Below are positions 49 to 50,181 of a stretch of 50,181 nt of DNA, one piece after another; position 1 is the stretch's first letter; every line of letters begins with the position of its first letter. The position numbers were made by a program, and so were the translations under genes. Source of the DNA: Candidatus Sulfopaludibacter sp. SbA3 (lineage in GTDB: Bacteria; Acidobacteriota; Terriglobia; Bryobacterales; Bryobacteraceae). The notes under the pieces are model-generated. The model was not told where the DNA came from. It saw only the letters and a program-made list of their open reading frames with translations, and ran no database searches. The stretch lies in assembly GCA_945860645.1 (NCBI GenBank), contig CAMATG010000003.1:1-50181 (forward strand). The letters run 5' to 3'.

Positions 49-699
49 ATGCCATCCATGGACGCTAAATACAAACGTGCCATGCAAGCCAGAATCAACG
101 GAGCCAAGTCCAAGGGCGCCAAAACCGCCGAAGGCCAGCACCGCACCCGGACTGCGTCTCTCCAACACGGCCTCTACGCCACCCCGGACACGCTCCGCCA
201 CACCGTAGACCCCAATCTCTACGAGGATTTCCGCCGCGAAATCCAAGCCGTCTGGGGCGAAGCCAACCGCCACATCACCACCCGCGTCAACCATCTGGTG
301 TCTCTGATGTGGGAGATGGATCGCCTCATCGCCACCCGCCGCCAATACATGGAAGAGATGTTCCAGTTATACGGCGCCAGCGTCAGCGACATCGAAGTCC
401 TGGTCAGCCAAAAAGGCGACATCCTCGAGCGAATCGACGCAAGAATCCGGCGTCTAAATCTGGAAATCTCCAGAATCGAGCGCGACCTCGTCCACCTGAA
501 GAAAAACACGGCCCAGCAAGGACCCTCCCACAAGCCCTTGCAAACAAACACAAAACCATTTTCCACAGGGCCGTGCTACCAGGAAACTCCGGACCAGGAA
601 TCCCCGGAGCCTCGGGTTTCCCCGGTACCCACGCCGGAAATATCCACCGAAGGAAGCTCACAAGCACCCAAAATGCCCGACACGGCCACCAAAATCTAA
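49..699 (+). CDS. Hypothetical protein, acidobacterial KSKGAKTAEG family
   Basis: The product is 216 aa and its function is unknown. A strong Shine-Dalgarno (GGAGGA, 36-41) lies 7 nt before the ATG and fixes the start. The N-terminus is basic (MDAKYKRAMQARINGAKSKG), followed by KTAEGQHR and HGLYAT. I recall this block as a recurrent paralogous family in Solibacter-type genomes, but have not checked it by search. Residues about 60-155 are helix-prone, with Arg/Glu heptad-like spacing and probably a coiled coil (DILERIDARIRRLNLEISR). The last 60 residues are a Pro/Ser/Thr-rich, probably disordered tail. There is no signal peptide, so it is likely cytoplasmic. Because the basic head resembles a nucleic-acid-binding tail, DNA association is possible, but that is inference. 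Confidence 0.75.
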   Translation: MPSMDAKYKRAMQARINGAKSKGAKTAEGQHRTRTASLQHGLYATPDTLRHTVDPNLYEDFRREIQAVWGEANRHITTRVNHLVSLMWEMDRLIATRRQYMEEMFQLYGASVSDIEVLVSQKGDILERIDARIRRLNLEISRIERDLVHLKKNTAQQGPSHKPLQTNTKPFSTGPCYQETPDQESPEPRVSPVPTPEISTEGSSQAPKMPDTATKI

Positions 700-47782: not shown

Positions 47783-49094
47783 TTGGGTGTGGATGCCATC
47801 ACAGCGCTGGAGTATGAATGGCCATACTTGCTAACCTTTCTTCCTCCTACTGAGCAACTGGAAGCGTCGGCTGCTCAGTTTGGAGCCATCGTGCGAAAAA
47901 GATCCGTGAACGATGCAGAATCTCTGCTGCGCCCTGCACTCGCTTACGGTTACTGTGGTCTCTCGCTTCGCCAGACGGCAGCATGGGCGGAGGCTTGCAA
48001 CATCGCCTCTTTGTCGGATGTTGCGCTGCTCAACCGATTGCGCAAGTCTTCAGATTGGCTGGGTCACTTGCTGGGCCTTAAGTTAGCTGACATTTCTGGG
48101 TTTGCCGCCATGTCATCTCCTTTTCGGCTTCGCCTCGTCGATGCGACTGCCATTTCCGGGCAAGGAAGCCGCGGCACAGACTGGCGCATTCATCTCTCCT
48201 ACAATTTGTCCTCTTTGTCGATTGATCACATCGAACTGACAGACCACGCTGGCGGCGAATCACTTACCCGATTTCCGATGTCGCCGGGAGATTTGGTGCT
48301 GGGTGACCGCGGCTATGCCCATCGTGCCGGTTTTTACGCCGTCAAGAATGCTGGTGCCGACTTTCTTGTTCGAATCCCTTGGCAAAGTGTCCCTCTGCTT
48401 ACTTCCGCAGGTGAAAGCTTCGACCTCATAGCCGCCTTGCGCTCGGTACGTGAGGCTGCGATCGCCAGTATCGACGTCCAGATTGCCGGCGATAAGAAAC
48501 GCAAACTACCTGCCATGGCTGCTCGCTTGCTCGTGTTGCGTAAAAGTGAAACTGCGGCGGCGAAGTCCCGCACCAAAGTACTGGCGGAGCGCAGCAGGAA
48601 AAGCGAAACCGTTGATCCTCGCAGTTTGGAAGCGGCCTCCTATATCATCCTTCTGACTTCGACAACCGAGGCGCAACTCGCCGCCGTCCAAGCCTTGGAG
48701 TTATACCGCTTTCGTTGGCAAATTGAGCTAGTCTTCAAAAGGCTTAAAGGTTTGATCGGTCTCGGCAACATGCCCGCTAAGGATGTCGGCCTGGCACGGA
48801 GTTTGTTGTATGCCAAACTATTGGCCGCTCTCATCCTCGATGACCTCACAGATCGATTTCTGGCGATTTCCCCCTGGGGATACCCACTACGCACATAGAA
48901 GTGCCTCTTTGTGGAGGATTCAGATCGCCTTGACCGATTCGCTGCGGACCGGAATCCTGGGAACTTGCGGCATTCGAGACTGGCTGCGGTCCCACGCCCG
49001 CGCGCGCAGACACTTTTACGATACCCCCAGAAAACGAGAAAAACAGATCGCCGCGGTTCTGAGGGGCTCGATGCCCGGCATCGAAGGTCGTTAA
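47783..49094 (+). pseudogene. IS4-family DDE transposase with late frameshift
   Basis: TTG 47783 follows GGAGG by 6 nt. The first frame gives 371 aa to a TAG at 48896-48898. DDE residues are visible: Asp in LRLVDATAISGQG, Asp in LVLGDRGYAHRAG, Glu in YRFRWQIELVFKRLKG. The C-terminal family segment (RSASLWRIQIALTDSLRTG, then RDWLRSHARARRHFYDTP) follows in the +1 frame and ends at 49094. Skipping one base at the TAG joins them as PLRTRSASLWRIQ. The catalytic core is complete without this tail, so some activity is possible. Either a point insertion or a programmed +1 shift explains it. Confidence 0.85.
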
Positions 49095-49195: not shown

Positions 49196-49402
49196 CTAGC
49201 GTACGATTTTGAAACCGATCTTCACGGTCACTTGAAACTCCTCGACCGATTTCTCTACGATTCGGCCTCGCTGATTCACCACCTCAAACCATTCCATGTG
49301 GTGAACGGTTTCGGCTGCTTCCGCCACGGCTGTTTTTACCGCTTCGGCAAAGCTCTCGCGGGAGGTCCCGACGACTTCAATGATCTTATAAATACCTGGC
49401 AT
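49196..49402 (-). CDS. Dodecin family flavin-binding protein
   Basis: The product is 68 aa, the usual dodecin length. ATG 49402 opens into PGIYKIIEVVGTSRESFAEA. The conserved Trp lies in HHMEWFEVVNQRGRI, where dodecins stack flavins, and EEFQVTVKIGFKIVR closes the sheet. Dodecins assemble as 12-mers that store or buffer riboflavin/FMN in the cytoplasm. A longer upstream frame has no dodecin features and was not used. It begins 31 bp after the coiled-coil lipoprotein gene on the same strand and ends 31 bp past the reconstructed GNAT stop. Confidence 0.92.
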   Translation of the reverse strand: MPGIYKIIEVVGTSRESFAEAVKTAVAEAAETVHHMEWFEVVNQRGRIVEKSVEEFQVTVKIGFKIVR

Positions 49403-49433
49403 AGTTCCCTTTGTGTCAAATGACGGCGGGCGG

Positions 49434-49856
49434 TCAGTCTTTGAGATCCTTGACCAGCTTCTTAATCGCGGCTTCGGTCTTTTCCAAACCCTCTTCGACT
49501 TCGTTCTTGGCGGTCCGCGCGCCGGCGGCGACCTTGTCATCCCAGGTCGACATGCGGCCGCGCAGTCGAGCGGCATCCGCGCGGAGTTCCTTCGCCTCGG
49601 CGTTCAGCTTGGTGCGAGTTTTCGCGGTGGCTTTCTTCGCCCTTGCCTCAAGATTGTCGATTTCGGCGTCAAGTTGATCCAACCGTTTGGCGAGAGCCAC
49701 CTTCGCCTCGGCGGCTTCCGCTCTTGCGGCCCGAGCGGCTCGCTCGGTCGCTTCTTCGACGCTTTCCGTGCGGGTTTCCGTGGTTGTTTTTCTTTCCGAC
49801 TGGCAGCTGAAGAGCAAGCCCGTCATCGCTACGAGGAGAATGGTTTTGGTCGGCAT
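49434..49856 (-). CDS. Coiled-coil lipoprotein of unknown function
   Basis: The product is 140 aa. Signal peptide with lipobox LLFSC (TKTILLVAMTGLLFSCQ), then a nearly continuous Ala/Glu/Lys/Arg-rich helix (AARAEAAEAKVALAKRLDQL, LEARAKKATAKTRTKLNAEA) expected to form a long coiled coil. Charge and heptad pattern are like envelope spacer or apolipoprotein-like proteins. It probably projects from a membrane into the periplasm. Upstream of dodecin and likely co-transcribed with it, although a shared role is not evident. Confidence 0.75.
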   Translation of the reverse strand: MPTKTILLVAMTGLLFSCQSERKTTTETRTESVEEATERAARAARAEAAEAKVALAKRLDQLDAEIDNLEARAKKATAKTRTKLNAEAKELRADAARLRGRMSTWDDKVAAGARTAKNEVEEGLEKTEAAIKKLVKDLKD

Positions 49857-49907
49857 GCCCTCTTCTATGCACGCCTCTACCCAAACTCCGCTTGCTCGAC
49901 GCCTCCC

Positions 49908-49948
49908 AAAAAGCGAAACGGCCGGCCCGCCGCAGCGAACCAGCCGTT
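49908..49948 (-). terminator. Rho-independent terminator for the minus-strand micropeptide transcript
   Basis: On the minus strand AACGGCTGG (49948-49940) pairs with CCGGCCGTT (49925-49917), one G-U pair, around a 14-nt loop. TTCGC and then TTTTT (49912-49908) follow. It lies 28 nt after the stop of the candidate 22-residue gene and in the correct orientation. No other gene would need it. Confidence 0.55.
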
Positions 49949-49975
49949 AAAACCCAAAACCGAACCGCGAGCAGC

Positions 49976-50044
49976 CTACTGCAAGCTGCCACGCAGCTTA
50001 TAAGCGCCCGCCTTCACAGCCGTGCGGACAACCAGAGCAGTCAT
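49976..50044 (-). CDS. Candidate micropeptide gene (22 aa)
   Basis: ATG 50044 to TAG 49976 encodes a 22-residue peptide that opens MTALVVRTAVKAGAYKL and ends RGSLQ. The (V/L)V(R/K)TxVKAG pattern resembles short peptides I recall from acidobacteria and other environmental bacteria, from memory only and without a search. The upstream ribosome-binding region is weak (GGAATC), and the left end of a possible insertion sequence begins only about 10 bp upstream, so the native leader may have been displaced. A good terminator follows. The 301-bp stretch 49857-50157 otherwise holds no larger gene. Confidence 0.4.
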   Translation of the reverse strand: MTALVVRTAVKAGAYKLRGSLQ

Positions 50045-50053
50045 ATTGGTCTT

Positions 50054-50181
50054 TGATTCCGCTACTCTGAATTGGCCCACAGTGATGGTCAGAAATGGCC
50101 CACCCTGTTAGCGAACCGTGTACTCTGAATTCGGCGAAAAGCCGGAAGGAGGAGCGGTTGAACAGGAGAAGGAAAGTGGAA
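50054..50181 (+). mobile_element. Probable left end of an IS21-like element (partial)
   Basis: Two 11-bp copies of TACTCTGAATT (50063-50073, 50121-50131) and two near-identical boxes GAATTGGCCCAC / GAAATGGCCCAC (50069-50080, 50092-50103) precede GGAAGGAGGAG and a TTG at 50158 opening a basic frame (LNRRRKVE). Multiple short terminal repeats followed by a well-initiated frame fit the left end of an IS21-type element with istA leaving the window. The exact boundary, set here at TGATTCC, is a guess. Confidence 0.35.
50158..50181 (+). CDS. Start of a gene leaving the window, possible IS21 transposase
   Basis: TTG follows GGAAGGAGGAG closely and opens LNRRRKVE before the window ends. Eight codons are too few for identification. 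The terminal-repeat context suggests an istA-type transposase. Confidence 0.3.

What the first reader, a model, noticed from the sequence alone, without database searches (positions are those of the whole stretch)
49908..50044. Possible expressed micropeptide with VKAG-type motif and its own terminator
A 22-codon frame (opening MTALVVRTAVKAGAYKL) is followed 28 nt later by a hairpin plus T5 that serves no other gene. The peptide looks designed rather than random, and similar VKTxVKAG peptides recur in environmental bacteria from my recollection. A neighbouring insertion may have cut its leader.
Basis: partly seen in the sequence, partly recalled or inferred. Interest (0 to 1): 0.5.

Follow-up and report, generated by a model that had tools for sequence, protein, structure and literature searches.

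The report
Beheaded copy of a micropeptide gene
The window ends in the last copy of a small array of tiny peptide genes, cut off from its start signal by a jumping gene; the peptide belongs to an apparently undescribed family of soil bacteria that tends to occur together with one kind of peptide-cutting export pump.

Summary
The frame, hairpin and T5 are real, but this copy is a remnant. A same-genus genome keeps the intact array: three tandem ~266-bp units, each leader, SD, 26-codon ORF (MKTNTTALVVRTAVKAGAYKLRGSLQ) and hairpin. Synteny makes the window copy the last unit and own contig C275 the first.

The recalled VKTxVKAG family exists: peptides of 15 to 400 residues with [VLI][KR][TS]x[VLI]K[AG]G, often repeated and followed by NHN(Q/E)T, in Acidobacteriota, Planctomycetota and a Myxococcales MAG. 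They co-occur with one subfamily of C39-peptidase ABC exporter (12 of 18 exporter genomes, 5 of 381 others) and lie near it in 9 of 19 loci, including this genome's C841. Most likely they are export substrates cut after a minimal double-glycine-like leader. Libraries and papers searched here do not name the family. Expression, cleavage and function are untested; ten exporter loci show no such peptide.

The parts
49976..50053 (-). Remnant of the micropeptide gene: codons 2-26 and stop of the ancestral ORF (KTN[M]TALVVRTAVKAGAYKLRGSLQ); ancestral start codon lost
   Evidence: Alignment with intact units of G192 C106 and own C275
49976..50044 (-).
49917..49948 (-). Terminator-like hairpin, 14 pairs, present in each complete unit; T5 at 49912-49908
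50054..50181 (+). Left end of an IS21-family element, running off the contig end
   Evidence: Found in 20 of 237 family genomes, 27 of 29 listed alignments beginning at base 1 of the query; IS21 transposase behind the same end in G177; only one copy found in the own assembly, this one
50158..50181 (+). Probable first 8 codons of the IS21 transposase gene (TTG start)
   Evidence: Read against the G177 frame; inferred
49434..49856 (-). Coiled-coil lipoprotein-like gene following the array; synteny marker shared with G192 C106, where only its beginning matches

Best explanation
SHOWN: the frame is the 5'-truncated last unit of a tandem array of near-identical micropeptide genes, each with leader, SD, 26-codon ORF and hairpin; an IS21-family element replaced its start codon and leader. 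SHOWN: the peptide is related to a larger family of micropeptides and repeat peptides with the motif [VLI][KR][TS]x[VLI]K[AG]G, and the window's genome has further members, one directly before a HlyD gene and a C39-peptidase ABC exporter gene. INFERRED: the motif is a minimal double-glycine-like leader read by that exporter; the C39 domain cuts after [AG]G and the short C-terminal part is secreted. For the intact window-type gene that part would be AYKLRGSLQ; in repeat proteins the NHN(Q/E)T units would be released in many copies. INFERRED: ECF sigma factors and Ser/Thr kinases beside some loci control them, which suggests a secreted signal or a small bacteriocin. The window copy itself is most likely silent; the first unit on C275 keeps a TTG start and SD.
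For: Array and break. Constraint on the ORF: 4 of 81 coding columns vary (ATG/TTG, one missense, one synonymous, TAA/TAG) against 37 of 161 flanking columns, p 2e-4. Family link: profile of NHN units ranks the window frame first of 1203; gapless start-to-start alignment with a G192 NHN peptide, 0 of 5000 shuffles as good. Exporter: peptide profile hits 12 of 18 exporter genomes and 5 of 381 others; motif peptides in the fetched DNA of 9 of 19 exporter loci, including peptides without NHN. H and D of the peptidase conserved in 21 of 21; nearest solved domains are double-glycine proteases. The pair at the putative site is AG 91, GG 11, AA 5, other 12 of 119.
Against: No expression, cleavage or secretion data. 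The window-type array is not beside an exporter. Ten of 19 exporter loci show no motif peptide and no alternative one upstream. Six of 18 exporter genomes lack a profile hit, though one of them, G028, has the FNPQP type in another place. Co-occurrence is not corrected for kinship, and the profile rows came partly from the same genomes. In long members the motif itself is repeated, so it may be the functional unit rather than a leader. What follows the second, broken unit on C275 was not identified.
Confidence: 0.6

Rival explanations
1. The micropeptide family is real but works inside the cell: the V-K-T-x-V-K-A-G unit is the functional part (for example a small cationic nucleic-acid- or membrane-binding segment), and the exporter link concerns only the NHN type or is incidental.
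For: The motif is repeated in long members; ten of 19 exporter loci have no motif peptide; the window-type array lies apart from the exporter.
Against: Peptides without NHN also sit beside the exporter (MTIKTNVKAGKKANR in G113, MKVKSNVKAGRAVWGA in G128, MKVKSNVKAGKGLWGA in G101). The two genomes with the window-type array both carry the exporter.
Confidence: 0.22
2. The window copy is still expressed: a promoter in or near the IS21 end drives the truncated frame from the new ATG or from a GTG at 50080.
For: The frame stays open into the IS end (34 codons from GTG 50080); the hairpin is intact.
Against: No AGGAG-like site seen before either start (by eye); no sigma-70-like site in 49400-50181.
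Confidence: 0.12
3. The array is a set of tandem small RNAs with terminators and the ORF is incidental.
For: Each unit has a conserved leader and a strong hairpin.
Against: The ORF varies less than leader and 3' part and its changes keep the frame; relatives share the peptide motif, not the leader; Rfam gives only weak hits far below gathering scores.
Confidence: 0.06
4. Chance ORF without meaning.
For: It is short and in no curated family.
Against: Intact tandem homologs, profile match and shuffle test.
Confidence: 0.02

Closest known systems
PCAT-type exporters (C39 peptidase plus ABC transporter) with double-glycine leader peptides: PCAT1, LahT, ComA
   Same: Exporter has C39 and ABC domains and its C39 domain matches LahT 6mpz, PCAT1 and ComA chains; small-residue pair AG or GG at the putative cut
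   Different: Leader would be only about 8-17 residues; the motif is also used as a repeat in long proteins; no cleavage shown. Leader rules are recalled, not tested
NHLP bacteriocin export systems (TIGR03796, TIGR03797, TIGR03794)
   Same: Best or near-best transporter models for the exporter; C39-ABC plus HlyD plus, in L068 and L092, a second ABC
   Different: Scores far below cut-off (166-198 against 853 bits); no nitrile-hydratase-like or Nif11-like leader seen in the peptides
FxSxx-COOH system TPR protein (NF040586)
   Same: TPR proteins beside NHN loci in L039, L040 and L063 match its TPR part (128-156 bits)
   Different: Below the 300-bit cut-off; the peptides printed do not end in FxSxx
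IS21 family insertion sequences
   Same: The element end that truncates the gene; transposase behind the same end in G177 scores 211.5 bits, cut-off 160
   Different: Only the left 128 bases are in the window

Membership tests
VKAG micropeptide family (defined here) | Core motif [VLI][KR][TS]x[VLI]K[AG]G near the N-terminus | tested here: met
   VRTAVKAG at residues 10-17 of the intact 26-mer; profile E 4e-4 for the window frame, shuffle test 0 of 5000 with the best of ten hand-picked members, 3-195 of 5000 with the others
VKAG micropeptide family (defined here) | NHN(Q/E)T after the core | tested here: not met
   Window type has AYKLRGSLQ instead; several other members also lack NHN, so I do not treat it as defining
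PCAT / double-glycine exported peptide | Genome encodes a C39-ABC exporter of the associated subfamily | tested here: met
   G000 C841 (95% identity to the G192 C39 domain over 117 residues, cut by contig end) and G192 C127
PCAT / double-glycine exported peptide | Peptidase catalytic residues Q, C, H, D | tested here: met
   H in 21 of 21 and D in 21 of 21 aligned domains; Q and C were part of the retrieving pattern, so their conservation is not independent
PCAT / double-glycine exported peptide | Gene beside the exporter | tested here: not met
   Not for the window-type array; met for other family members in 9 of 19 exporter loci
PCAT / double-glycine exported peptide | Cleavage after the small-residue pair and export | not testable with these tools
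   Needs biochemistry
NHLP bacteriocin export (TIGR03796) | Exporter above the curated cut-off | tested here: not met
   198, 166 and 189 bits against 853 for three exporters
RiPP | Peptide-modifying enzyme in the cluster | not tested
   Gene lists were read by eye and only chosen proteins scanned; no systematic scan for modifying enzymes
IS21 insertion sequence | IS21 transposase behind the same left end | tested here: met
   L197, 211.5 bits, cut-off 160; in the relative G177, the window contig ends after about 8 codons

The most novel reading that the evidence does not exclude
Acidobacteriota and some Planctomycetota and Myxococcota run a dedicated micropeptide secretion system: scattered or tandem genes and poly-unit proteins share an 8-residue VKTxVKAG address that a private C39 exporter subfamily reads and cuts, releasing many short and differing peptides (AYKLRGSLQ, FNPQPDPPGRR, SAAWGT, NHNQT units) as signals or weapons, in some loci under ECF sigma and kinase control.
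Probability: 0.45. Interest if true: 0.75.

Novelty: new variant of a known kind. Interest (0 to 1): 0.55.

Why it matters
Acidobacteriota are abundant in soil and, to my knowledge, have few known peptide signals. A family of genes of about 15-100 codons, many of them too short for ordinary gene finders, that co-occurs with one peptide-cutting exporter subfamily would make secreted peptides of these bacteria directly testable: the peptidase domain and the candidate substrates are small enough to make in a laboratory strain. The case also shows how an IS insertion at a contig edge can make a beheaded gene look like a new one.

Tried and rejected
Rfam on the window at gathering score: nothing. 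Permissive Rfam on the intact array: four weak hits, all far below gathering scores. Pfam and NCBIfam on the window frame, and Pfam, NCBIfam and PHROGs on the intact 26-mer (0 families each) and on NHN proteins: no convincing family. One Pfam hit of the repetitive L039 protein is above its cut-off (NIR_SIR_ferr, 26.6 against 24 bits, no stretch passing alone); I take it as a repeat artefact. NHN protein against plasmid and phage records: no match. IS end against plasmids: no match; in the own assembly only the window copy. PADLOC was not searched.

The bare motif pattern in 200 family genomes gave 54 matches in 25 genomes, its reversed control 20 matches in 18 genomes (my sums), so the raw pattern is only mildly enriched per genome, and several matches lie in large unrelated proteins. 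What convinces is clustering in tiny, often tandem ORFs, and the profile and exporter results. Exporter search of the genus with a whole C39-ABC protein: 19 of 19 genomes match at E <= 1e-20 because generic ABC domains match; only G185, G192, G113 and a G000 fragment match the C39 part at high identity.

Adjacency control: 16 loci of other C39 exporters (37% identity or less) gave 4 loci with a motif hit, one ORF type (LKSLIKGGRLLLKP...) in L181, L183, L186 and L189, which by position and strand I read as antisense inside the transporter gene. In L162 one of ten motif hits is likewise on the strand opposite to the exporter. Upstream DNA (up to 900 bp) of ten exporter loci was searched for another common micropeptide: none seen; one of the ten, L093, had no upstream DNA.

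Considered and rejected: type I toxin (sequence not hydrophobic; antisense RNA not tested); regulatory leader peptide (each intact unit has its own hairpin and the next unit follows).

Papers: eight searches; only listings and starts of abstracts were seen, no paper was opened. Five of the searches returned nothing, one an 1891 masthead, two listed papers on other matters as far as titles and abstract starts tell. Statements on PCAT leaders and double-glycine sites are recalled.

Full report
WHAT IS THERE. The window is the whole contig C3 of a 6.53 Mb, 857-contig, 76% complete genome. Its family looks like Bryobacteraceae (Acidobacteriota); this is inferred, because contigs of the same family or genus in my session equal in length named contigs (36551 and 87016: Bryobacterales; 31617 and 181613, same genus as the window: Acidobacteria). 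On the minus strand near the contig end lie 22 codons from ATG 50044, a stop at 49978-49976, and 28 nt later a 14-pair hairpin followed by TCGC and T5.

THE INTACT LOCUS. The own genome holds a second copy on C275, 91% identical. There the frame starts with TTG behind AGGAG and reads MKTNTTALVVRTAVKAGAYKLRGSLQ; the same hairpin follows, then a second copy of the leader DNA. The same-genus genome G192 has three tandem units on C106, spaced 265 and 268 bp, each with leader, AGGAGAAACAC, ATG, the 26-codon ORF and the hairpin (in the third unit codon 3 differs). Of 19 genus genomes only G000 and G192 match the unit. C275 and G192 C106 are collinear (94.7% over 3140 columns) up to and into the array; window and G192 C106 are collinear from the last unit into the beginning of the lipoprotein gene (90.4% over 293 columns). 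I conclude that C275 holds the first unit and the window the last unit of one array, broken in this genome. The second unit on C275 loses homology shortly after its start codon; what follows it there was not identified.

THE BREAK. Homology of the window copy to the complete units begins at codon 2 (50053). The next base, 50054, is the first base of a sequence that matches in 20 of 237 family genomes, this one included; 27 of the 29 listed alignments begin at query base 1. In G177 it is followed by an IS21 family transposase (211.5 bits, cut-off 160), and the last bases of the window read like the start of such a frame. In the own assembly only this copy was found, as can happen when repeats collapse in a MAG. 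An IS21-family element therefore replaced start codon, SD and leader. ATG 50044 stands where intact copies have the Thr codon ACG. The window copy is best called a remnant.

IS THE ORF REAL? Over four complete units 4 of 81 coding columns vary (ATG/TTG start, one missense at codon 3, one synonymous, TAA/TAG stop); in the flanks 37 of 161 columns vary, gaps counted (Fisher p 2e-4). The units are paralogs from two close species, so this is modest evidence by itself.

THE FAMILY. In 200 family genomes the DNA pattern for V[KR]TxVKAG-like stretches gave 54 matches in 25 genomes, the reversed control 20 in 18 (sums). Several matches lie in large proteins, but many lie in tiny ORFs, often tandem: MKVQT[SQP]VKAGFNPQP[DE]PPGR[RH] (three, G028), MKVKTKVKAGSAAWGT (two, G164), MKVNTKVKAG... 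(two, G088), and repeat proteins with VKTxVKAG-xxxx-NHN units in frames of up to 412 codons (G073). A strict pattern for the NHN type hits 18 stretches of the genome collection: 13 titled Acidobacteria or Acidobacteriota groups (three from one genome), three Planctomycetes, one Myxococcales, and one delta-proteobacterial contig (L075) where no such peptide was confirmed. A profile of 62 NHN units, none from the window-type array, ranks the window frame first of 1203 segments (E 4e-4; next 0.37). The intact window-type peptide aligns without gap, start to start over 21 residues, with a G192 NHN peptide (MNTNKTTLKIKTSLKSGGVSL...), 0 of 5000 shuffles as good; nine other hand-picked members gave 3 to 195 of 5000. 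The window genome has further members on C841, C72, C500 and C346.

THE EXPORTER. Several NHN loci adjoin a HlyD protein and an ABC exporter with N-terminal C39 peptidase, some also an ECF sigma factor, a Ser/Thr kinase or a TPR protein (verified with family models for L039, L040, L045, L063, L068 and L163; others by eye). In this genome C841 reads MKLKTKIKAGALTQNHNQASR, HlyD, C39-ABC, the last cut by the contig end. With the 140-residue C39 domain of G192 as query, 52 of 399 class genomes match at E <= 1e-6 with a clear gap: 18 at E <= 1e-48 (57-100% identity), the others at E >= 3.7e-15 (at most 37% identity, except a 38-residue fragment in G050 at 71%). The NHN profile hits 17 of 399 at E <= 0.01; I take the two samples, drawn by the same request, to be the same genomes. 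Both: 12 of 18 against 5 of 381, Fisher 3.7e-15, not corrected for kinship; some profile rows came from these genomes. Of the five others G344 has a clear NHN peptide, the rest are weak. Within the genus G000, G113, G185 and G192 have both; seven listed genomes have neither (the lists of genomes without a match are cut). Nine of 19 exporter loci (18 plus the G050 fragment; 3-14 kb each) contain a motif peptide, including NHN-less MTIKTNVKAGKKANR, MKVKSNVKAGRAVWGA and MKVKSNVKAGKGLWGA; ten do not. Of 22 loci given to the script 21 gave a C39 domain start; all 21 keep the H and the D (one ends at the D), while Q and C were part of the retrieving pattern. Nearest solved domains: 6mpz (double-glycine protease domain of an AMS/PCAT transporter), PCAT1 and ComA entries.

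HOW IT PROBABLY WORKS. Recalled: C39 domains cut after GG-, GA- or GS-type pairs with hydrophobic residues upstream. In 119 distinct units found with a loose anchor (a few spurious) the pair is AG in 91, GG in 11, AA in 5, other in 12, and a hydrophobic residue stands four places before the putative cut (part of the search pattern). I infer that VKTxVKAG is a short leader and the variable rest the product. Against this: the motif is itself repeated in long members, and not every exporter locus has a visible substrate.

STATUS. Shown: truncated gene, IS21 end at the break, array, family relation, co-occurrence with the exporter. Inferred: cleavage, secretion, role, control. Not tested: expression. 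No library searched and no paper listing seen names the family; the paper library lacks most subscription journals, so it may be described elsewhere.

Noticed in passing
window 49-699; L003 6298-6885; L035 2900-3511; L157 6332-6946: Proteins with an N[GA]AKS[KQ]GPKT-like N-terminal motif, without a convincing Pfam or NCBIfam match where tested, lie at the window's other end, upstream of the intact array and beside an NHN peptide locus.
   Followed up: partly
L043 3270-5153; L172 6898-8829; L039 8444-10354: Genes that begin with an FHA-like stretch (by eye) and, for the first two, match sigma-54 activators lie beside micropeptide or exporter loci; possibly another kind of regulator of the system.
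   Followed up: partly
window 49196-49402 (-): Dodecin gene (NF043052, 90.5 bits, cut-off 75) behind the lipoprotein-like gene.
   Followed up: no
window 47783-48898 (+): IS4 family transposase frame (NF033592, 120.8 bits, cut-off 115), a second mobile element within 2.3 kb of the IS21 end.
   Followed up: no
L003 7440-7918 (own contig C275): The second unit of the array loses homology just after its start codon; the sequence that follows was not identified and may be another insertion or an assembly edge.
   Followed up: no
L162 7237-8638: In G207 about nine different short VK[TS]x[VL][KR][AG]G peptides with variable inserts before NHNE(Q/R) lie in a row upstream of HlyD and the C39 exporter.
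   Followed up: partly
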